Shown here: positions 34,673 to 44,555 of the stretch, piece by piece | Layout: every line of letters starts with the position of its first letter | How positions within the stretch are numbered: position 1 is the first letter of the stretch | DNA from: Salaquimonas sp. | GTDB lineage: Bacteria > Pseudomonadota > Alphaproteobacteria > Rhizobiales > Rhizobiaceae | Direction of reading: 5' to 3' | Assembly: GCA_028289365.1 (NCBI GenBank) | Contig: JANQQM010000060.1 | Span: 54,601 to 118,600, forward strand | Length of the DNA stretch: 64,000 nt | Position numbers and translations under genes: made by a program | The notes under the pieces: generated by a model | Databases searched by the model: none | What the model saw: the letters and a program-made list of their open reading frames with translations, nothing else | Told to the model about the DNA's origin: nothing

Positions 34673-36418
34673 TTGCAACAAAAAAAAAATTGTTTTCGGC
34701 AGTTGAATATCCCTGTCATTGATGTGTTTGCGGGGCCAGGCGGCCTTTGTGAAGGCTTCAGTAGTTATAAAGATAACAAAGTACGTTTTGATGTAAGGCT
34801 ATCTATCGAAAAAGACGCCGTTGCGCATCAAACACTTCTTCTTCGTGCGTTTTTCCGGAAGTTTGATTTAGGCAAAGTACCGGAAGAGTATTATCAATAT
34901 GTACGAGGTGAAATATCCAAGAATACTCTTTTTAAGCGGTTCCCGCGTGAAGCGAAACAAGCATCCGAGGAAGCCTGGTGCGCCGAGCTTGGGGAGACGC
35001 AACGGCACGAAGTCCACAACAAGATTGCTGGTGCGATTGGCCAACACGAGCATTGGCTACTGATAGGCGGACCTCCGTGCCAAGCATACTCGATGGTGGG
35101 CCGAAGTCGGATTCTAGGTAGACTCCGGGAGGCAATTCCGGAAACGATCGCGCGGGAATTGGAAGCCAACATCAGAAAGCGAAGTGGCAACCTAAACCCA
35201 AATGAATTTGCAGTGGCTTTTGCGGAAGCTGCGAAGGAACACGCAAAGGATGTATTTCACGAGGACCACCGTCATGACCTTTATAAAGAATACCTGGAAA
35301 TTGTTGCTGTCCACCAACCAAGCATATTTGTTATGGAGAACGTTAAAGGCATCCTCTCGAGTAAAGTTAGAACCCAATACATTCTAGAGAGTATTTTGAC
35401 CGACTTAAGATCTCCTTGGAGTGCGCTCGACTCTGAACGACGCCAAGCTCTAGAAAAGCCGTTTAAAGCTTATGAATATGAGCTGCACTCTTTTGTTGTA
35501 AGTAAGACAGATGGCCAAGAACCGTCATGGAACGAGTTTGTAATAAGCGCTGAAGAGTATGGTGTTCCGCAAAAAAGACACAGATTGATTCTTCTGGGAA
35601 TTCGAAATGATATCTCTGAAAAGCCTAACGTTTTGAAGAAAAACAAAAGAACGGTTTCCGTCAAAGACGTAATAGGTAACTTACCTAAACTGAGAAGTCA
35701 TATCTCGAGACGACCCGATGATCAGGCTGAGTGGTCAAATGCTATCAAAGAGGGCGCAGAACGATCTGTCATTCCAAATATCGAAAACTGCGAAGTGCGA
35801 TCCATTGTCAATGGTGCTATTGATAACCTTGCCGAGGAATGTTCAGTAGGCGGGCGGTTTATTAGAGGAAACTATTTTCCTGCTGTAACACTGGGAAAAT
35901 GGTTGGAAGACAAAAAGCTGAATGGAGTGATTCAACATAGGGCACGAGGACATATGGTTTCGGACCTTCTACGTTATTTATTCGCTGCATCGCATGCTCA
36001 ATTTACAGGAACATCGCCAACGCTGTATGAATTCCCGAAAGAACTGCTTCCGAACCACAAAAATACTGAAAATCTAAAGAATGGTGCCGGTAGAAAACAG
36101 AAAGGAGTTATTTTCGAAGATCGATTTAGAGTACAGACGGCAGATACACCTGCTAGAACAATAACTTCCCACATTTCAAAGGATGGTCACTACTATATCC
36201 ATTACGATCCGGCTCAATGCCGTAGCCTTACCGGAAGAGAAGCCGCTCGCTTGCAAACATTTCCCGATAACTATTTCTTTGAAGGAAATCGAACTGAACA
36301 ATATCACCAAATTGGGAATGCAGTTCCCCCTTTCTTGGCTTTTCAGCTAGCTCATATTGTCGCCGATCTGCTTGATAGAACTACTCGTTTTCAGAGGCAA
36401 AAGAGTGGACGTTCTTGA
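34673..36418 (+). CDS. dcm: DNA (cytosine-5-)-methyltransferase
   Basis: Motifs I DVFAGPGGLCEGF, IV GGPPCQAYSMVGRSR, VI VMENVKGI, VIII QKRHRLILLGIR, X QIGNAVPPFLA. Start uncertain because of an A10 tract near the TTG start. Confidence 0.93.
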   Translation: MQQKKNCFRQLNIPVIDVFAGPGGLCEGFSSYKDNKVRFDVRLSIEKDAVAHQTLLLRAFFRKFDLGKVPEEYYQYVRGEISKNTLFKRFPREAKQASEEAWCAELGETQRHEVHNKIAGAIGQHEHWLLIGGPPCQAYSMVGRSRILGRLREAIPETIARELEANIRKRSGNLNPNEFAVAFAEAAKEHAKDVFHEDHRHDLYKEYLEIVAVHQPSIFVMENVKGILSSKVRTQYILESILTDLRSPWSALDSERRQALEKPFKAYEYELHSFVVSKTDGQEPSWNEFVISAEEYGVPQKRHRLILLGIRNDISEKPNVLKKNKRTVSVKDVIGNLPKLRSHISRRPDDQAEWSNAIKEGAERSVIPNIENCEVRSIVNGAIDNLAEECSVGGRFIRGNYFPAVTLGKWLEDKKLNGVIQHRARGHMVSDLLRYLFAASHAQFTGTSPTLYEFPKELLPNHKNTENLKNGAGRKQKGVIFEDRFRVQTADTPARTITSHISKDGHYYIHYDPAQCRSLTGREAARLQTFPDNYFFEGNRTEQYHQIGNAVPPFLAFQLAHIVADLLDRTTRFQRQKSGRS

Positions 36419-36815
36419 CCAAAAGCAACGTTCCTACAATATGTCCCGGATCAAATCTCGGGACACAAAGCCTGAGTTAATACTCAGAAAAGCTCTCTGG
36501 GATGAGGGCCTGCGGTACAGAATCAAAAACAAACTCCCAGGCAAACCAGATGTTGTTTTTAGAAAGAAGAAAATCGCAATATTTGTCGATGGGTGTTTCT
36601 GGCATAAGTGTCCCAAGCATTTTAAACTACCCAAAACACGAACTGATTTCTGGCGAGATAAAATTCAGTCGAATGTCGACCGTGACAAGAAATCAGTTAA
36701 AGAACTAGAAGTAGCTGGTTGGTACGTGCTTCGTTTTTGGGAACATGAAATAGCGAATAATTTGGAGCAGGTAATGTCTAAAATATCAAATGCATATCAT
36801 GTTTTGAATGAGTAG
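36405..36815 (+). CDS. vsr: very short patch repair endonuclease Vsr
   Basis: RSYNMSRIKSRDTKPELILRKALWDEGLRYRIKNKLPGKPDVVFRKKKIAIFVDGCFWHKCPKH; GTG start at 36405 overlaps the dcm stop. Confidence 0.93.
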   Translation: MDVLDQKQRSYNMSRIKSRDTKPELILRKALWDEGLRYRIKNKLPGKPDVVFRKKKIAIFVDGCFWHKCPKHFKLPKTRTDFWRDKIQSNVDRDKKSVKELEVAGWYVLRFWEHEIANNLEQVMSKISNAYHVLNE

Positions 36816-38086
36816 ATTCCCGGCCGAGCCATTTGTTTTGAAACGTTAAAGGCCACCTGATTGAGAATCTCTTCCCGGAATCGAAACCATACACTCGTTT
36901 GCCGAAATTTATTGTGGGAGAAACGAGTTAAGTAATTAGCTGAAATTCTAAATACATAGCACTGATCATCAAAATCGATACCGGGGAACTCGTATATATC
37001 CTGAGAAGGCTTTTTGGTGCTAAATCCTCCTTTCTTTGCCGCGATACCGAGTACATATGGAAGGAATTTTTGATCATGGTTGGCATAATCACAAGCTGGT
37101 TGGATTTGCAAAAAATATAATCCTTCTTGTCCCTCAAACTGGTCATTTTTGAATTTGAAGTGCTTTTTCACCTCAGAAATATTGTATCCGATTTCTCTTT
37201 TAAGCCTGCTGTCATCCCAGGTGATTTTTAGAACAGCACCACGTTCTCTATGCGGTTTGTTTCCGCTTAATGTCGACGTATGGATCATGCGATTTAGCCG
37301 AGCGCCAACGGCTAGTTTGGGTTCTCCAGCAGGATGCCTAAATGCGTTCTTCCACACCAACTTCTGATTTGCGGAAACCGGAAGATGTACAAGACTATCA
37401 CTAAATATCGGCGTAATCGCTTGGTTGATAGCCTGCATCTTGTCAGAATCCACGTGACGATCTCCCATAGCCTTCGACGCCAATTGACTGAGCAGTGCAT
37501 TTAATTGTTTGGGGTAATCCTGACTATTTCTTTTGTCATCCGGAATCAGACTATCAACAGTTGCAAGTGTAATGCCAGCTGCCCGGAGCGTACGAGCTTC
37601 CCAATCGATCAATGCCGCAATTTGAGGGTTTTTATTAATTGAATCTGTCAGCGCTCCAAGCAAATTGCAATCAGTCTTCAACCGACCATCTGCTGTTATA
37701 TATTTGTTCTTATTTACTGCAATGACAGCGACCGGGCATTTCTTTTGCTCAAGTCTGTTATCAAGATAACTTTTTAGTTCGTGCGCCTGACCAGCATACC
37801 GCGTCCACAATATCAATACAAATGGACCGTTTTCTACGCTAACAAGTTCATCCAGCAATACGCTGATGACCGCAAAGTGCTTTTCTTTATTTTGTTCATC
37901 GTTGCCCAACAAGTGCAAATCTGAAAACAGTACTCGTACATGATTGACCATATCATAAGGAGTTGTTTTATCATTTGAGTAATGTATTGGAATGTTCGCT
38001 AACCTTAATTCATTCAACCCGCTTACTAAGGCATCCAAGTGAGATTTATCATCATCTATCGCTATAATTTTAGGTGACAGCATCAT
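36797..38086 (-). CDS. receiver-like (REC) N-terminus with large uncharacterised C-terminal domain
   Basis: MMLSPKIIAIDDDKSHLDALVSGL..VRVLFSDLHLLG..FVLILWTRY pattern of a REC fold; start corrected to about 38086, overlapping the upstream ATPase stop. Confidence 0.65.
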   Translation of the reverse strand: MMLSPKIIAIDDDKSHLDALVSGLNELRLANIPIHYSNDKTTPYDMVNHVRVLFSDLHLLGNDEQNKEKHFAVISVLLDELVSVENGPFVLILWTRYAGQAHELKSYLDNRLEQKKCPVAVIAVNKNKYITADGRLKTDCNLLGALTDSINKNPQIAALIDWEARTLRAAGITLATVDSLIPDDKRNSQDYPKQLNALLSQLASKAMGDRHVDSDKMQAINQAITPIFSDSLVHLPVSANQKLVWKNAFRHPAGEPKLAVGARLNRMIHTSTLSGNKPHRERGAVLKITWDDSRLKREIGYNISEVKKHFKFKNDQFEGQEGLYFLQIQPACDYANHDQKFLPYVLGIAAKKGGFSTKKPSQDIYEFPGIDFDDQCYVFRISANYLTRFSHNKFRQTSVWFRFREEILNQVAFNVSKQMARPGIYSFKT

Positions 38087-40280
38087 TTTCTTCCTCAAAC
38101 AAAAAAGCAACAACTGCACCATCATATTCAAGCGGTATTCCGGCATCTACTGCATTCGTAAAAATCAACCGGGCATTATTGATCTGTAAAGCCATATTTG
38201 TATAGTACAAGCCCAATCCAGTTCCTCGTTTGCCGTTATTTGTGATCTTCCTAGTAAAGAATGGTCGTATCAGATCTTCTGGTGTATCTTCTGCCTGAAA
38301 TCCGGGGCCATTATCCGCTATTACCAATGCTGGACCATCGCCTAGATTATAAGATACACCAATATATATTGCTCTTTTGGGAGCTTCACTCTGATCCGTA
38401 TCAGGCCAGCGTACCTGCAACCAATGAATTGCGTTGTCTAAGACATTTGTTAAGCAATTGAGCATCATACCAAATGCAAATTTTGCCTGAAAATCTGTCT
38501 TGTCAGAATCAATGAGAGGGGCTTCTATCCTGACCTTGTGATAGACCAATCGTCCCCTATAAAATCTGCGGGCCTGTCGGATAACTTTAGAAATCGGCTG
38601 TAGTTTAATTGGGTCCTGACGAAGAATATCTGTGATATTATCTAGCAGTTTATCGAGGTGTTCAGCCTGCGCTTGGACTTCCTTAAGCGAACTTCCGCTA
38701 GCAGCGGATTGCGACAGTGCTTTCACACCGCGCACGACTTCATGGAATACAATCTGAAGGCTGAGGTTCGACATGCCAGCATGCAGCATTGTCTCCCGCA
38801 TATCTTCGTAATCGATCTCAATTTTCTTGATGAATTTTTCAAGTTGATCTTGGACCTTCAATTCCGTAGCTTTTTTGCGAAGCTCTGCTAGAGGGACGCG
38901 AATCTTTTCAATTTCGGGGTCAGCTTTTTTCTTGGTTACAAGGCGAATCCTGTTCTTATCTTTTGAATACTCTGGCATAAATGCGAATATTGCGCCCCGC
39001 ACCAGTGCTTTAAAATTCAGATAAGTCTCATTTTCAACAAAGCCTTCGCGATTAGCTTTCTCCCGGAGTTCTTCACTCTCATCAAGTCGGATATTTATTG
39101 CACCTGCGACAATATTATTACTTACCCGCTGCGCTGGTTCTTGAATTCGCCAAAGATCGAGACCTAACCAATCGTCTCCAGGTTCTCCATAATTGTAAAC
39201 GCGGATCCCGTCGCGATAGACCCTAATGCCTCCATTGGCGTTTAAATAACCAGCAGCATCGCTAAGTGAAGGTACATATTGTTGGGTAATTCTATCCCGG
39301 TCGAAGATGTAAAACTCGCCCGATATGGGACCAATACCTAATTGCATTTCTGATGTTGCAGTTAGTGTTCTTTTGTAAATTACTTCACCTGAATCTTCAT
39401 ATTCTTCTCGTGGTGAAGGAACTGAAAAACTCCGCTTTTTCTGTTCGATCGTCCTGTTTTCCAAAGAAAGTTCTGGCACTCTACGAAAGTGATACTTCGT
39501 TGAAATCTTTCCATCTTCAATTCGAAACTGACAACGCCAAAATGCCAGTTTGAATATATCATCAATCGAACGAATCCCCTTGAGCCATCCTTCGTGCCCA
39601 GGCAATTCTAGCCTGGCCTCAAAGTTTGATGCAGGAAGGAGTGATTTTTTTGTTGCCAGGGGATCTAGATCAAACGGTGAGTTCATGGATACGATTTGCC
39701 GGTAGAGTTTTCGAATTTCTCCTCTGCTCCATTCGGTACCGCGTAAATCCGAAATAGTAATTTTAGTTCCTGTACTGCGTCCTTTAAATACTTCTGGCTT
39801 TCTGAAAAGGACTGAAACAATCGTTTCATCCAAAAATTTCTTTTCGAGTAATTTGTCCCAGTTGATTGAGATCACACATTCATCTTGCCCAGATGCCCGG
39901 GTTATTAATTCAATTTTATTTCCAAGTTTATGCGAAGCGAACCTACCCAGTCCTTTTTCGCCCAACGGTAATCGACCTTTTTTTGTACGTTTCTTTTCTT
40001 GTCGCTGCTTTTCTCGATGATCGTCCCCTGGGACCAGCCACACATTCTTAATAGTTTGCATGGACATTCCAATACCGTCATCACGTACCACAATGCGTCG
40101 GTTTTTCTTTTCAATATCGTGAAATGATACTGTAACTATGCCAGCATCAGCATCATAAGCGTTCTTCACCAACTCAAAAACAGCCAGTCTTGCGCTTCCA
40201 ATTAGTTGATCTCCCAGAAGCTGCAGTAAGCGCGCGCGTGGCCGAATAGGTAATTGGAGTACAGAATCATTAGATGTCAT
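38070..40280 (-). CDS. dual-GHKL ATPase / histidine-kinase-like protein
   Basis: N-terminal Hsp90/MutL-type site (AVFELVKNAYDADA; VVRDDGIGM; LGEKGLGRFA), central H-box-like FHEVVRGVKAL, C-terminal HK-type site (NCLTNVLDNAIHWL; IADNGPGF; GTGLGLYY). Confidence 0.85.
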   Translation of the reverse strand: MTSNDSVLQLPIRPRARLLQLLGDQLIGSARLAVFELVKNAYDADAGIVTVSFHDIEKKNRRIVVRDDGIGMSMQTIKNVWLVPGDDHREKQRQEKKRTKKGRLPLGEKGLGRFASHKLGNKIELITRASGQDECVISINWDKLLEKKFLDETIVSVLFRKPEVFKGRSTGTKITISDLRGTEWSRGEIRKLYRQIVSMNSPFDLDPLATKKSLLPASNFEARLELPGHEGWLKGIRSIDDIFKLAFWRCQFRIEDGKISTKYHFRRVPELSLENRTIEQKKRSFSVPSPREEYEDSGEVIYKRTLTATSEMQLGIGPISGEFYIFDRDRITQQYVPSLSDAAGYLNANGGIRVYRDGIRVYNYGEPGDDWLGLDLWRIQEPAQRVSNNIVAGAINIRLDESEELREKANREGFVENETYLNFKALVRGAIFAFMPEYSKDKNRIRLVTKKKADPEIEKIRVPLAELRKKATELKVQDQLEKFIKKIEIDYEDMRETMLHAGMSNLSLQIVFHEVVRGVKALSQSAASGSSLKEVQAQAEHLDKLLDNITDILRQDPIKLQPISKVIRQARRFYRGRLVYHKVRIEAPLIDSDKTDFQAKFAFGMMLNCLTNVLDNAIHWLQVRWPDTDQSEAPKRAIYIGVSYNLGDGPALVIADNGPGFQAEDTPEDLIRPFFTRKITNNGKRGTGLGLYYTNMALQINNARLIFTNAVDAGIPLEYDGAVVAFLFEEENDAVT

Positions 40281-40388
40281 ATGCGAACTCTACTCCATTT
40301 CTGAATTATGATCCCACGACATTCTGTATTTGGTAGATATAATCAAAAATGAAGGAAAAAAATAAGTTGGAAAGAAACAGATACAACA

Positions 40389-41312
40389 ATGAAAATTTGG
40401 ATGCTTACCATTACAGGTCGAAAAAAATATTGGGGAAACGAACAATATGGCAACGACCCTATTCGTAGCTACAGTTATGACAGCCTGGTCCAAAATCATA
40501 AAGCTCTTGCAATTAACGACATTATTATTATCCGGGAAGGTGAACGACTTACCGGCCTTTCTACCATAGATCAGATACACCAGAAAGCTGGCTACAAAGA
40601 GCTAAATGAGTGTCCAGTTTGCCGTTCTAATCGAGTTAGGTTCAGGCGAACAATTAAACCACATTGGAAATGCGCATACGGTCATCAGTTTGATGCGCCT
40701 GAAAAAGCTGTCCGTAATGTTGTTGTCTATGACGCAAAATTTGAAGAACAGTATAGAGAACTGACTCCAAACATCGATTGGCGCAGGCTTCGAAGTCATT
40801 TCAGCAATAAAAGTGCCCTATCGATACGGAATGTATCACTACAGTCTCTGCTAAAATCTAATGACATCGAACTAAGACCGTTGCAACTCATCCTAAGACG
40901 CCTGTTGGACGAAAATCCCGCAAATTCAGGCGGTCAAAAAGATCCAAAATCAGCAATATATAACGCGAAGAACGCGCTAGGTGAGCTCGTAGATTTTTTA
41001 GAAGGATGCAGGGCTAGTGACGATACGGATCCCCGTAACGGCAACAAATTGGAACTTCCAATTGATACCGTTCAACTCACCGCGCTTTGGTCAGAGATTG
41101 AAGTAATTCGAGATCAATTAGACAAACCAGAAGCAGTTCTTCAGAATTCTAAAGAACCTAGTTTCGTTATGCAGCAAACCAAGAATTTTTTGTCCGAATT
41201 TATTAAGGGTGCGGGAAAAACTGCAGGCGCACTTGCGGCGGCAGGTATTGCAGCCAAGTTATTCGGCTTACTAGATGCAATAATCTTAGCGTTGAAAATG
41301 CTGACGCCGTGA
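40389..41312 (+). CDS. EVE/PUA-like N-terminus + zinc ribbon + helical region with hydrophobic C-terminal tail
   Basis: MKIWMLTITGRKKYWGNE..AINDIIIIREGERLTGLSTIDQIHQ; CPVC..WKCAYGHQF zinc-ribbon; tail AGKTAGALAAAGIAAKLFGLLDAIILALKML. Confidence 0.6.
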   Translation: MKIWMLTITGRKKYWGNEQYGNDPIRSYSYDSLVQNHKALAINDIIIIREGERLTGLSTIDQIHQKAGYKELNECPVCRSNRVRFRRTIKPHWKCAYGHQFDAPEKAVRNVVVYDAKFEEQYRELTPNIDWRRLRSHFSNKSALSIRNVSLQSLLKSNDIELRPLQLILRRLLDENPANSGGQKDPKSAIYNAKNALGELVDFLEGCRASDDTDPRNGNKLELPIDTVQLTALWSEIEVIRDQLDKPEAVLQNSKEPSFVMQQTKNFLSEFIKGAGKTAGALAAAGIAAKLFGLLDAIILALKMLTP

Positions 41313-41717: not shown

Positions 41718-41880
41718 GCCGCTATCATCAGCACCTATCCCGACATGAATGAGGCCGACCGCAGCGAAATGCCGTAAGGAGAGCAGCATTTTCCTCAAAC
41801 CATTTGCCTGGTGGTCGTTACCGGGCCTGTGGCAGTGGAGGCGCTGGAACGGTCCGGTGCCTGATCGGAAGAGGAAATGA

Positions 41881-42154
41881 TATGCTGACCACACAACAAA
41901 CAGCAAGGAAAGTTGGATCGAACTCCGCAAAGCCAAGCCGAAAAATAGCTAAAACAAGCAAGGCAGACAAGATCATCAACCTGCTAAAACGCAAGCGCGG
42001 CGCCTCTATCATTGAGCTTGCTGAGGCAACCGGCTGGCATGCGCATTCCGTGCGAGGTTTTCTGTCGGGTACGGTGAAGAAGAAACTCGGCCACGCGCTG
42101 ATTAGCAAGCCGGACAACAAAGGCTTACGCCGTTACCAGATCATTGAAGCCTGA
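41881..42154 (+). CDS. DUF3489 domain protein
   Basis: KADKIINLLKRKRGASIIELAEATGWHAHSVRGFLSGTVKKKLG. Confidence 0.85.
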
Positions 42155-42157
42155 TCG

Positions 42158-42625
42158 ATGGCTTCACACGGGAAGTCAAAGCCAATTGACCTTAAAGAAA
42201 TCTCCGTGCTGGACACACTTGGCAGGACCGAGCTTATTGAGTGCTGGATCAGAATGCATGGGCGCACGCCGCCCAAGCATCTTTCTGCAATATTCCTGCG
42301 GCGGGCGCTGACCTATGAATTGCAATGCCGACAACTGGGCGGGCATTCTCCATCAGTTCGAAGGGCGCTCAAGACTGCGTTGAAACAGGATGAAGAGGAA
42401 GCAGCTTCACCATCAACAGCCCCTATCCTGTCCGCCGGCACCCAGCTTGTTCGTGAATGGAATGGCCGAACCTACCGCGTAGAAGTAGCAGAAGACGGTT
42501 TTTCGTTTGACGGCAAATCCTACCGATCGCTCAGCGCCATCGCCAACAAGATCACGGGTACGAATTGGTCAGGGCCACGCTTCTTTGGCCTGGTAAAACG
42601 GTCGGGTTCGGACTCACAAAGATGA
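42158..42625 (+). CDS. DUF2924 domain protein
   Basis: GTQLVREWNGRTYRVEVAEDGFSFDGKSYRSLSAIANKITGTNWSGPRFFGL. Confidence 0.88.
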   Translation: MASHGKSKPIDLKEISVLDTLGRTELIECWIRMHGRTPPKHLSAIFLRRALTYELQCRQLGGHSPSVRRALKTALKQDEEEAASPSTAPILSAGTQLVREWNGRTYRVEVAEDGFSFDGKSYRSLSAIANKITGTNWSGPRFFGLVKRSGSDSQR

Positions 42626-44262
42626 AGAAGATCCGCTGCGCGATCTATACACGCAAATCCTCCGAAGAAGGCCTGGAGCAGGACTTCAACTCACTTGATG
42701 CACAGCGTGAGGCCTGTGCATCTTACATTGCCAGTCAGAAGCATGAAGGCTGGACGCTGTTGCCAAATCACTATGATGATGGCGGTATCTCGGGCGGTCA
42801 TCTGGAGCGCCCTGCCCTGCAGCAACTATTGTCTGATGTGGATGATGGGGCAGTTGATCAGATCGTCGTCTACAAGATCGACCGATTGACGCGATCGCTG
42901 GCCGATTTTGCCAGGCTGGTCGATCGCCTTGAAACAGCTGGTGCCTCCTTCGTTTCGGTTACACAATCCTTCAACACAGCAACCAGCATGGGACGTCTAA
43001 CCTTAAATGTCCTGCTTTCCTTTGCCCAGTTTGAACGTGAAGTCACCGCAGAGAGGATAAGAGACAAAATAGCTGCCTCAAAGCAAAAGGGACTGTGGAT
43101 GGGTGGCAGCATTCCGCTTGGCTATGACATTGCCGGGCGAACACTAACAATCAATGAAGGTGAGGCTGAAACGGTTCGGACCTTGTTTGATCTCTATGAG
43201 AAGCACGGAACCGTCCGGGCTGTTGTCGCTGAAGCCGAACAACTGGGATTGCGCTCCAAGGTCCGAACATCACCAAATGGAAGGACTACGGGCGGAAGGC
43301 TGTTTGATCGCGGTCATGTTAATTACCTGCTGACCAATCCGGTCTATGCCGGCAAGATCCGTCACAAGAGCAAGATCCATAACGGATTGCATCCAGCCAT
43401 CATTGAACCGGATCGGTGGCAGGCGGTACAGGCAAGCTTGATGGCACAGGCATCACGTTGCAGGCGGAACCAACGGGACGGTTCCAGGGTATCCCTACTT
43501 GCTGGAAAGCTAAGAGATGAAACCGGCGACAGACTGACGCCAAGCCATACCAACAAGCATGGACAACGCTATCGCTATTATGTCTCTCATCGTTTGATCA
43601 GGCATTCAGGAGAAGCGCATCAAGATGGCTGGCGGTTGCCAGCTAGGCAGCTGGAGGACAGAATTGCAAACGCTGTGCTGGATCATCTGAAAGGCGAGGC
43701 TGCGAGCGATCTATTGCTTGAAGCGACTGCCGACAATATCGCAAAACTTCAAGAGATGATTGAGGCCATGAAAGAAGGTGATCAGAACAGATCACACCTT
43801 TTGTCGCTGATCAACGAAATCCGGCTGGAACCCGGATCTGCATCCATCACCTTGGACCTACAGAAGACAGGCAAGGCACTGAATGTAGATCCGGCGCTCA
43901 TCAATCTGAACCATTTACAGTTCTCTTGCCACTTCCAGACCAGAAAACGTGGTGTGGAAACACGGCTAATCCTTGGTCAGGCAAATCAATCCGTTGACCC
44001 GTTACTGATCCGAAACATCGCCAGGGCCCATCATTGGTATGAAGCTATCAAATCAGGTCTTTCCTATGAGGAGATTGCCAGGCGCGGTCAGGTATCAAAA
44101 CACCGGATCATGCAGACCATCCACCTGGCATTCCTGTCACCGCAAATCGTCAAGGCCATCCTGCAAGGCAATCAACCGACAGACCTGACCACGAAGAAAC
44201 TTCTGCGCAACCCACCTCCCTCATGTTGGAAAGCGCAAATCCAACAGCTGAGCGCGTTATAG
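42622..44262 (+). CDS. large serine recombinase (resolvase N-terminal + recombinase domain)
   Basis: MKKIRCAIYTRKSSEEGLEQDFNSLDAQREACASYI; YKIDRLTRSLADFARLVDRLE; recombinase Zn-ribbon-like central region. Confidence 0.93.
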   Translation: MKKIRCAIYTRKSSEEGLEQDFNSLDAQREACASYIASQKHEGWTLLPNHYDDGGISGGHLERPALQQLLSDVDDGAVDQIVVYKIDRLTRSLADFARLVDRLETAGASFVSVTQSFNTATSMGRLTLNVLLSFAQFEREVTAERIRDKIAASKQKGLWMGGSIPLGYDIAGRTLTINEGEAETVRTLFDLYEKHGTVRAVVAEAEQLGLRSKVRTSPNGRTTGGRLFDRGHVNYLLTNPVYAGKIRHKSKIHNGLHPAIIEPDRWQAVQASLMAQASRCRRNQRDGSRVSLLAGKLRDETGDRLTPSHTNKHGQRYRYYVSHRLIRHSGEAHQDGWRLPARQLEDRIANAVLDHLKGEAASDLLLEATADNIAKLQEMIEAMKEGDQNRSHLLSLINEIRLEPGSASITLDLQKTGKALNVDPALINLNHLQFSCHFQTRKRGVETRLILGQANQSVDPLLIRNIARAHHWYEAIKSGLSYEEIARRGQVSKHRIMQTIHLAFLSPQIVKAILQGNQPTDLTTKKLLRNPPPSCWKAQIQQLSAL

Positions 44263-44480
44263 GCAGGAATTGCCGCCGCTATTGGTAGGATCAGTCACCA
44301 ATTCACGCATCAGCGCAATGCCAAACCCCAGTCCCCAAAAAGCCGAACCGAGACAAAGCCATATAAACGAGCCAATATGAGGGGTAATCTAGTCTCAGGT
44401 CTTGGGCCACTGTTATAACCCATTGAAACTACGCAGCTATTGCCAGGCAGGAGATACTGGTGTGGATTTACGAGAGTGGG

Positions 44481-44555
44481 TGGCTGGGGCGGCTGGATTC
44501 GAACCAGCGCATGGCGATACCAAAAACCGCTGCCTTACCGCTTGGCTACGCCCCA
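44481..44555 (-). tRNA. tRNA-Gln (anticodon TTG)
   Basis: Reverse complement TGGGGCGTAGCCAAGCGGTAAGGCAGCGGTTTTTGGTATCGCCATGCGCTGGTTCGAATCCAGCCGCCCCAGCCA folds as a cloverleaf; encoded CCA. Confidence 0.92.

What the first reader, a model, noticed from the sequence alone, without database searches (positions are those of the whole stretch)
34673..41312. Candidate new defence module: Dcm + Vsr + receiver-like protein + dual-GHKL kinase-like ATPase + EVE/Zn-ribbon/hydrophobic-tail protein
Seen: a complete C5-methyltransferase and overlapping vsr, but no recognisable cognate restriction nuclease. Instead there is a tightly overlapped REC-like/GHKL pair on the opposite strand, and a divergent gene with an EVE-like N-terminus, CxxC..CxxxH ribbon and hydrophobic tail. 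The block looks more AT-rich than its flanks and sits next to a serine recombinase cassette. Established: GHKL (MutL/Hsp90-like) ATPases are known to associate with restriction-modification loci, and two-component-like architectures occur in defence (e.g. Detocs). Inference: the five genes form one system in which the GHKL/REC pair senses or restricts and the EVE-tail protein reads modified DNA and/or acts as effector.
Basis: partly seen in the sequence, partly recalled or inferred. Interest (0 to 1): 0.78.

Follow-up and report, generated by a model that had tools for sequence, protein, structure and literature searches.

The report
Methylase-linked histidine kinase with toxin-fold effector
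Next to a DNA-methylating enzyme this bacterium carries a paired sensor kinase and response protein whose business end resembles the fold of cell-poisoning proteins; the same kinase, response protein and methylase sit together in bacteria of many phyla, which suggests a little-studied defence or guard system that watches DNA methylation.

Summary
All five ORFs are present. They lie in a 42% GC block inside ~51% GC flanks, beside a serine-recombinase cassette ending at tRNA-Gln. The 736-aa protein is a MutL/MORC-type GHKL ATPase fused to a histidine-kinase core. The 449-aa protein is a receiver-domain response regulator. The pair is widespread and co-inherited. In 49 homologous loci with complete ±8 kb flanks, the regulator is adjacent in 49, a C5-methyltransferase nearby in 48 and Vsr in 29; the 307-aa protein is in none. 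So the conserved unit is kinase + regulator + C5-MTase (± Vsr), not five genes.

The association was already reported (Bellieny-Rabelo 2021: HEF_HK/Response_reg_2; Iyer 2008: paraMORCs), but this clade is missed by both Pfam models. New here: the regulator's C-terminal domain carries an invariant Cys-Asp motif, shared with Response_reg_2 proteins, and its predicted structure resembles CcdB/MazF-fold toxins.

Best mechanism: the clamp-kinase senses improperly methylated or foreign DNA, phosphorylates the receiver, and unleashes the toxin-fold output, with the MTase marking self. Phosphorelay parts are well supported; trigger and effector activity are inferred. The 307-aa protein shares its N-terminus with HNH endonucleases, lacks HNH, and is a local accessory; its EVE label is unproven.

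The parts
34673..36418 (+). C5-cytosine DNA methyltransferase, 581 aa, all catalytic motifs
   Evidence: PF00145 E=1e-40; closest PADLOC model DrmMII E=1e-85; motifs; all 70 C5-MTases scanned from homologous loci are PF00145
36357..36815 (+). Vsr very-short-patch-repair endonuclease, overlapping the MTase end
   Evidence: PF03852 E=4e-30, TIGR00632 148 bits over cut-off
36797..38146 (-). Response regulator: receiver domain (D31/D32, phospho-acceptor D76, T115, K146) plus a C-terminal CcdB/MazF-like output domain with invariant G303 and C352-D353; true start probably about 38086
   Evidence: invariants over 74 homologues; AlphaFold2 pLDDT 91, receiver fold by Foldseek; output-domain model and Foldseek
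38070..40280 (-). Soluble sensor kinase: N-terminal MutL/MORC-type GHKL ATPase (E36, N40, D67, G69, G71), middle domain (KxNREG), DHp-like helix with H513, C-terminal HK ATPase (N612, D615, N616, D656, G658, G660, G688, G690)
   Evidence: invariants over 49 homologues; profile hits MutL and histidine kinases in PDB, H513 lines up with the H-box His of LvrB
40389..41312 (+). 307-aa accessory protein: N-terminal ~125 aa shared with ZnR-HNH endonucleases, CxxC..CxxxH ribbon, no HNH, hydrophobic C-terminal tail (about residues 282-305)
   Evidence: absent from the other kinase loci
41804..44262 (+). DUF3489 / DUF2924 / large serine recombinase cassette beside the module (mobility genes, not part of the mechanism)
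   Evidence: PF11994, PF11149, PF00239, PF07508; second copy in the same genome at 84.6% identity
44481..44555 (-). tRNA-Gln; its 3' end is the right edge of the inserted DNA
   Evidence: homology to congeners resumes exactly at 44481 in two of three congeners

Best explanation
A mobile, C5-methylation-linked two-component conflict module. SHOWN by sequence and comparison: a soluble protein joins a MutL/MORC-type GHKL clamp ATPase to a histidine-kinase core (invariant H513, intact ATP site). It overlaps and is co-inherited with a response regulator carrying a receiver domain (invariant D31 and D76, nearly invariant D32 and K146). The pair practically always sits with a C5-MTase and often with Vsr. 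SUGGESTED by structure prediction: the regulator's output domain has a CcdB/MazF (PemK) toxin-like fold with an invariant Cys-Asp pair. INFERRED mechanism: the GHKL clamp closes on, or is loaded by, DNA whose 5mC state or integrity is abnormal (unmethylated invading DNA, or loss of the resident MTase). This activates the kinase, the phosphate passes from H513 to D76, and the receiver releases the toxin-fold domain to arrest growth or inactivate the invader. The MTase supplies the 'self' mark and Vsr repairs the T:G mismatches produced when 5mC deaminates. The 307-aa protein is a local accessory, possibly reading DNA and tethered to the membrane.
For: Pair adjacency 82/85 and 49/49; C5-MTase 48/49; Vsr 29/49 in complete loci across many phyla. 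Kinase-regulator distance matrices correlate r=0.86, kinase-MTase only 0.29, kinase-Vsr 0.53, all 0/200 permutations: a fixed pair that swaps MTases but keeps a C5-MTase. REases near the pair vary (EcoRII, MvaI/BcnI, AspBHI-Mrr, Z1/AIPR) and families of these kinds appear at only 26 of 82 loci. Phosphorelay residues conserved. Output-domain Foldseek: CcdB 0.99, CcdB 0.99, MazF 0.98, MoxT 0.91, further toxins 0.63-0.77, all other listed hits 0.23 or less; PemK-like in BFVD. Same Cys-Asp and C-terminal Gly motifs in Response_reg_2 proteins. Module absent from five congeners, low GC.
Against: No experiment: neither phosphotransfer, toxicity nor phage defence is shown here or in the papers read. 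Foldseek E-values for the toxin fold are only 0.014-0.1, and the toxin active-site residues could not be mapped; the invariant Cys-Asp is not, as far as I know, a MazF or CcdB catalytic feature. The trigger (DNA methylation state) rests only on gene neighbourhood. Some relatives sit beside real REases, where the pair could be purely regulatory.
Confidence: 0.45

Rival explanations
1. Regulatory two-component system for the R-M locus: the kinase senses cell or DNA state and the regulator tunes expression or activity of the MTase and any REase, without killing anything (the reading offered by Bellieny-Rabelo 2021).
For: Strict linkage to C5-MTase with variable REases; HK/REC architecture; some neighbouring MTases carry HTH domains.
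Against: No DNA-binding domain was recognised in the regulator; its output domain looks like CcdB/MazF rather than a transcription factor; many loci have no recognisable REase to control.
Confidence: 0.25
2. MORC/MutL-like restriction machine: the GHKL protein loops or clamps DNA, and the regulator output domain (or Vsr) cuts DNA not methylated by the cognate MTase, so the pair is the missing restriction half.
For: paraMORC GHKLs are tied to R-M systems (PMC2292703); N-terminal profile hits MutL; a C5-MTase is kept even where no REase is seen.
Against: The output domain matches no nuclease fold of the restriction-enzyme kind; the kinase and receiver residues are invariant, which a pure nuclease/ATPase machine would not need.
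Confidence: 0.15
3. Methylation-addiction module: the pair kills when its resident C5-MTase is lost, stabilising the mobile element that carries it.
For: Near-obligate C5-MTase linkage with MTase exchange; on plasmids and beside an insertion at tRNA-Gln; toxin-like output fold.
Against: Shares the untested premise that methylation is what is sensed; it could coexist with the defence reading.
Confidence: 0.1
4. All five genes including the 307-aa protein form one conserved system with the 307-aa protein as modified-DNA reader or effector.
For: The 307-aa gene is divergent from and next to the kinase gene; its N-terminus is shared with HNH proteins, some of which lie near dcm/vsr.
Against: No homologue beside any of the other kinase loci; PF01878 EVE not matched; C-terminal half has no detectable relatives.
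Confidence: 0.05

Closest known systems
HEF_HK (PF19191) / Response_reg_2 (PF19192) TCS-like pairs, Bellieny-Rabelo et al. 2021, PMC8011034
   Same: HATPase_c_3 + DHp-like + HATPase_c kinase; adjacent REC-like regulator with Asp/Lys/Thr signature; C5-MTase and Vsr neighbours. In 8 PF19192 loci fetched, MTase, GHKL (~1000 aa) and regulator (~590 aa) lie together, with Vsr in several. Kinases align full length (hhalign prob 100, E=1e-52); receivers align (prob 86); Cys-Asp and C-terminal Gly motifs of the output domain are shared
   Different: Window kinase is ~735 aa and regulator ~430-450 aa; none of 74 regulators or 49 kinases matches PF19192/PF19191; the output domain was not recognised in that work
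Prokaryotic MORC / paraMORC ATPases, Iyer et al. 2008, PMC2292703
   Same: N-terminal GHKL plus middle domain, R-M neighbourhoods with Dcm and Vsr
   Different: The families described there end in RE-fold, TIR or unknown domains; a receiver partner is not described there (0 occurrences of 'receiver')
Detocs (HK/receiver anti-phage system; own knowledge)
   Same: Logic: kinase senses infection, receiver-linked effector acts
   Different: No MutL-like clamp and no MTase/Vsr link in Detocs, as far as I know; PADLOC scan gave no match for the regulator
Shedu type I-D / VcSduA (GHKL + DUF4263), PMC12137116
   Same: GHKL ATPase proposed to control an effector; phage defence demonstrated
   Different: Effector is a fused PD-(D/E)xK nuclease; no kinase core or receiver described
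CcdB / MazF / PemK toxins
   Same: Predicted fold of the regulator's output domain
   Different: Fused behind a receiver; larger; invariant Cys-Asp; no detectable sequence similarity
BbrUII/HgiDII restriction enzymes (NF050001)
   Same: N-terminal GHKL domain, E=2e-24
   Different: 86 bits against a cut-off of 550; only residues 19-182 align

Membership tests
HEF_HK / Response_reg_2 TCS-like pair | match to PF19191 in the kinase | tested here: not met
   Window kinase: no hit at E<=1; PF19191 not among the 25 most frequent families of 49 kinases
HEF_HK / Response_reg_2 TCS-like pair | match to PF19192 in the regulator | tested here: not met
   0 of 74 regulators at E<=1; own genome not hit by PF19192
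HEF_HK / Response_reg_2 TCS-like pair | HATPase_c_3 + DHp-like His + HATPase_c architecture | tested here: met
   49/49 carry both ATPase domains; H513 invariant
HEF_HK / Response_reg_2 TCS-like pair | adjacent regulator with DD, phospho-Asp, Thr, Lys of REC | tested here: met
   D31, D76 invariant; D32, K146 >=90%; T115 invariant in the first six; adjacency 49/49
HEF_HK / Response_reg_2 TCS-like pair | C5-MTase / Vsr neighbourhood | tested here: met
   48/49 and 29/49; 70/70 scanned are PF00145
paraMORC / MORC | N-terminal GHKL with conserved ATP motifs in R-M neighbourhoods | tested here: met
paraMORC / MORC | S5 domain and membership in a named paraMORC1-5 family | not tested
   no paraMORC reference alignments on hand
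Type II restriction-modification system | cognate restriction endonuclease | tested here: not met
   only Vsr and weak GHKL-region REase hits
Two-component system | His-to-Asp phosphotransfer between the two proteins | not testable with these tools
   residues present; biochemistry needed
CcdB/MazF toxin superfamily | CcdB/MazF fold | tested here: inconclusive
   Foldseek probability 0.98-0.99 but E 0.014-0.021
CcdB/MazF toxin superfamily | toxin active-site or gyrase-binding residues | not testable with these tools
   no sequence alignment possible
EVE domain (307-aa protein) | match to PF01878 or homologous profile | tested here: not met
   no Pfam hit; PF01878 hits two other places of the genome, not this one; hhalign prob 0.2 although the N..GD motif is lined up
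Detocs | DtcA/DtcB/DtcC homologues | tested here: inconclusive
   no PADLOC hit to the regulator, but whether that 2023 library holds Detocs models was not verified

The most novel reading that the evidence does not exclude
A widespread immune or guard module in which a MutL/MORC-type DNA clamp has become a histidine kinase that watches the cell's 5-methylcytosine state and, through a phosphorelay, switches on a CcdB/MazF-fold effector: two-component signalling used as the killing arm of a methylation-based self/non-self system.
Probability: 0.3. Interest if true: 0.82.

Novelty: new variant of a known kind. Interest (0 to 1): 0.62.

Why it matters
A receiver domain driving a toxin-fold output, controlled by a fused MutL-type clamp kinase and tied to a C5-MTase, would link three fields usually kept apart: epigenetic self-marking, two-component signalling and toxin-like effectors. 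The module recurs in Pseudomonadota, Acidobacteriota, Chlorobi, Chloroflexota, Actinomycetota, Gemmatimonadota, Spirochaetes, Planctomycetes and others. I found no function assigned to its published sister group since 2021. The output domain and its invariant Cys-Asp give a concrete residue to mutate, which makes the function directly testable.

Tried and rejected
(1) Single-sequence scan of genome contigs with the regulator found nothing; an alignment of the kinase reached 348 relatives, of which 80 were kept. (2) PADLOC/NCBIfam give no system name for the pair. (3) EVE assignment tested three ways and not supported; a profile of its N-terminus finds mostly zinc-finger/ribbon proteins in PDB. 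(4) The 307-aa C-terminal half finds no relatives in plasmids or the loci and no viral relatives were found for the protein. (6) Looked for att direct repeats around the block; none of 16 nt or more that would mark borders; no left edge could be placed. (7) 'The pair replaces the REase' was weakened by finding EcoRII, MvaI/BcnI, AspBHI-Mrr or Z1/AIPR genes near 26 of 82 loci, though neighbours of the other 56 give few REase hits. (8) A literature search for HEF_HK/Response_reg_2 found, besides the 2021 paper, only one unrelated paper.
Full report
WHAT IS THERE. The five ORFs are real and at the stated places. The block 34.5-41.3 kb is 41.6-43% GC at its core inside 50-53% flanks. MTase and Vsr have intact catalytic motifs. 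The 736-aa protein carries two GHKL ATPases, HATPase_c_3 at the N-terminus and HATPase_c at the C-terminus. The 449-aa and 307-aa proteins match no Pfam, NCBIfam or PADLOC model beyond a weak Zn-ribbon in the latter.

NEIGHBOURHOOD TEST. Plasmid homologues of the 449-aa protein (Rhizobium, Agrobacterium, Burkholderia; 27-29% identity) all lie directly behind a dual-GHKL gene and near dcm and vsr. A scan of one genome per bacterial and archaeal species with the kinase alignment gave 348 relatives; the best 80 were analysed together with the plasmids. The scan used kinase motifs only, so the neighbours are an unbiased readout. Among loci with complete +/-8 kb flanks the regulator is present in 49/49, a C5-MTase in 48/49 and Vsr in 29/49. 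All 70 C5-MTases scanned are PF00145. For comparison, 150 whole genomes of the phylum hold 42 Vsr matches in all and 88 of 150 have any C5-MTase match. The 307-aa protein has no homologue in any of these loci. Distance matrices: kinase-regulator r=0.86, kinase-Vsr 0.53, kinase-MTase 0.29, each 0/200 permutations. So kinase and regulator are one inherited unit, while the C5-MTase is nearly always present but often exchanged. REases near the pair are of several unrelated kinds (EcoRII, MvaI/BcnI, AspBHI-Mrr, Z1/AIPR) and such families were seen at 26 of 82 loci.

ANATOMY OF THE PAIR. In 49 kinases both ATP sites are invariant (E36, N40, D67, G69, G71; N612, D615, N616, D656, G658, G660, G688, G690), as is H513. 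The profile matches MutL with its N-terminus and histidine kinases with its C-terminus, and H513 lines up with the H-box histidine of the kinase LvrB. In 74 regulators D31 and D76 are invariant and D32 and K146 nearly so; the AlphaFold2 model (pLDDT 91) has a receiver domain with response regulators as best matches. Regulator genes start within a few bases of, or overlap, the kinase stop. In the window the homologous start is M21/M22 (about 38086), so the 77-nt ORF overlap shrinks to about 15 nt.

OUTPUT DOMAIN. The C-terminal half of the regulator has invariant G303 and C352-D353 and nearly invariant N285, A355, Q356, R422, R441 and G443. Modelled alone (pLDDT 90.6) its Foldseek matches in PDB are led by CcdB (probability 0.99, twice), MazF (0.98) and MoxT (0.91), with further toxins of this fold at 0.63-0.77; all remaining listed hits have probability 0.23 or less. 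The E-values are weak, 0.014 upward. PemK-like proteins appear in the viral library too. I take the fold as likely, not proven.

RELATION TO PRIOR WORK. Bellieny-Rabelo et al. 2021 (PMC8011034) described HEF_HK kinases (HATPase_c_3 + DHp-like + HATPase_c) paired with Response_reg_2 regulators (91.6% linkage in 644 regions), enriched for C5-MTases and Vsr, and related them to paraMORCs (Iyer 2008, PMC2292703). The window proteins do not match those two Pfam families and neither do their homologues. To test kinship I fetched eight PF19192 loci: they show a C5-MTase, a ~1000-aa GHKL and a ~590-aa regulator together, with Vsr in several. The kinases align over full length (hhalign prob 100, E=1e-52) and the receivers align (prob 86, E=5e-6). 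The eight Response_reg_2 proteins share as invariants a Gly, the Cys-Asp pair (context LLCIQASCDS, like LVxIxAACDYAQ here) and the C-terminal Gly, and hhalign lines these motifs up (low probability). So the window belongs to a sister clade of that published system, and both clades probably share the same output domain, which the paper did not report.

THE 307-aa PROTEIN. Its first ~125 residues with the CxxC..CxxxH ribbon are shared with HNH endonucleases of Rhodococcus and Paenarthrobacter plasmids, two of which lie near dcm and/or vsr, and of one relative in the same class. It has no HNH; it ends in a hydrophobic stretch (Kyte-Doolittle mean 2.0 over 19 residues at 282-302) without known relatives. 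EVE membership failed three tests, although the N..GD motif is lined up. I treat it as a local accessory, possibly a DNA-reading module with a membrane tail.

MOBILITY. The DUF3489/DUF2924/serine-recombinase cassette recurs elsewhere in the same genome at 84.6% identity. In congeners the tRNA-Gln/tRNA-Pro pair is present and in two of three homology to the window resumes exactly at 44481, the 3' end of tRNA-Gln. The kinase is absent from five congeners (those assemblies are 80-88% complete). The left edge was not found.

MECHANISM. Shown: phosphorelay residues, dual ATPase, gene overlap, near-obligate C5-MTase linkage. Suggested: toxin-like output fold. Inferred: DNA or methylation sensing by the MutL-like clamp, and growth arrest or invader inactivation as output. 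The exchangeable but ever-present C5-MTase fits a self-mark or guarded partner better than a mere regulatory target, and the absence of a recognised DNA-binding domain in the regulator speaks against a classical transcription factor. Confidence in the full chain is moderate (0.45); that this is a kinase/receiver pair functionally tied to C5 methylation I hold at about 0.85.

Noticed in passing
window 42023-44486: The serine-recombinase cassette has a second copy in the same genome (contig C154, L149:7414-9877, 84.6% identity); its end coincides with the 3' end of tRNA-Gln here, while no tRNA was found beside the other copy.
   Followed up: partly
window 36797-38146: The annotated start of the 449-aa ORF adds about 20 residues that homologues lack; translation probably starts at about 38086.
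   Followed up: yes
L001, L005, L006, L031: Some rhizobial relatives combine the kinase pair with dcm, vsr, EcoRII, HNH, a second GHKL ATPase, an EcoRII-N effector-binding protein and a DEAD helicase in a ~12 kb block, a possible multi-layer R-M/MORC island.
   Followed up: no
L002, L034, L036, L059, L072: Other relatives carry the pair next to Dcm-Vsr-GHKL-Z1-PD-(D/E)XK-AIPR systems, so the pair co-resides with a second, different GHKL-based R-M system.
   Followed up: no
L090:1501-2469; Rhodococcus/Paenarthrobacter plasmid loci L091-L093: A family of HNH endonucleases with an uncharacterised N-terminal domain plus Zn-ribbon, in two of three plasmid cases inspected near dcm and/or vsr: possible uncharacterised modification-dependent nucleases.
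   Followed up: partly
phage records MT838277.1 and MT837790.1: Two short human-faecal phage-collection contigs (5.5 and 6.2 kb) encode relatives of the kinase (45% and 27% identity), so the module may ride on phage or be packaged host DNA.
   Followed up: no
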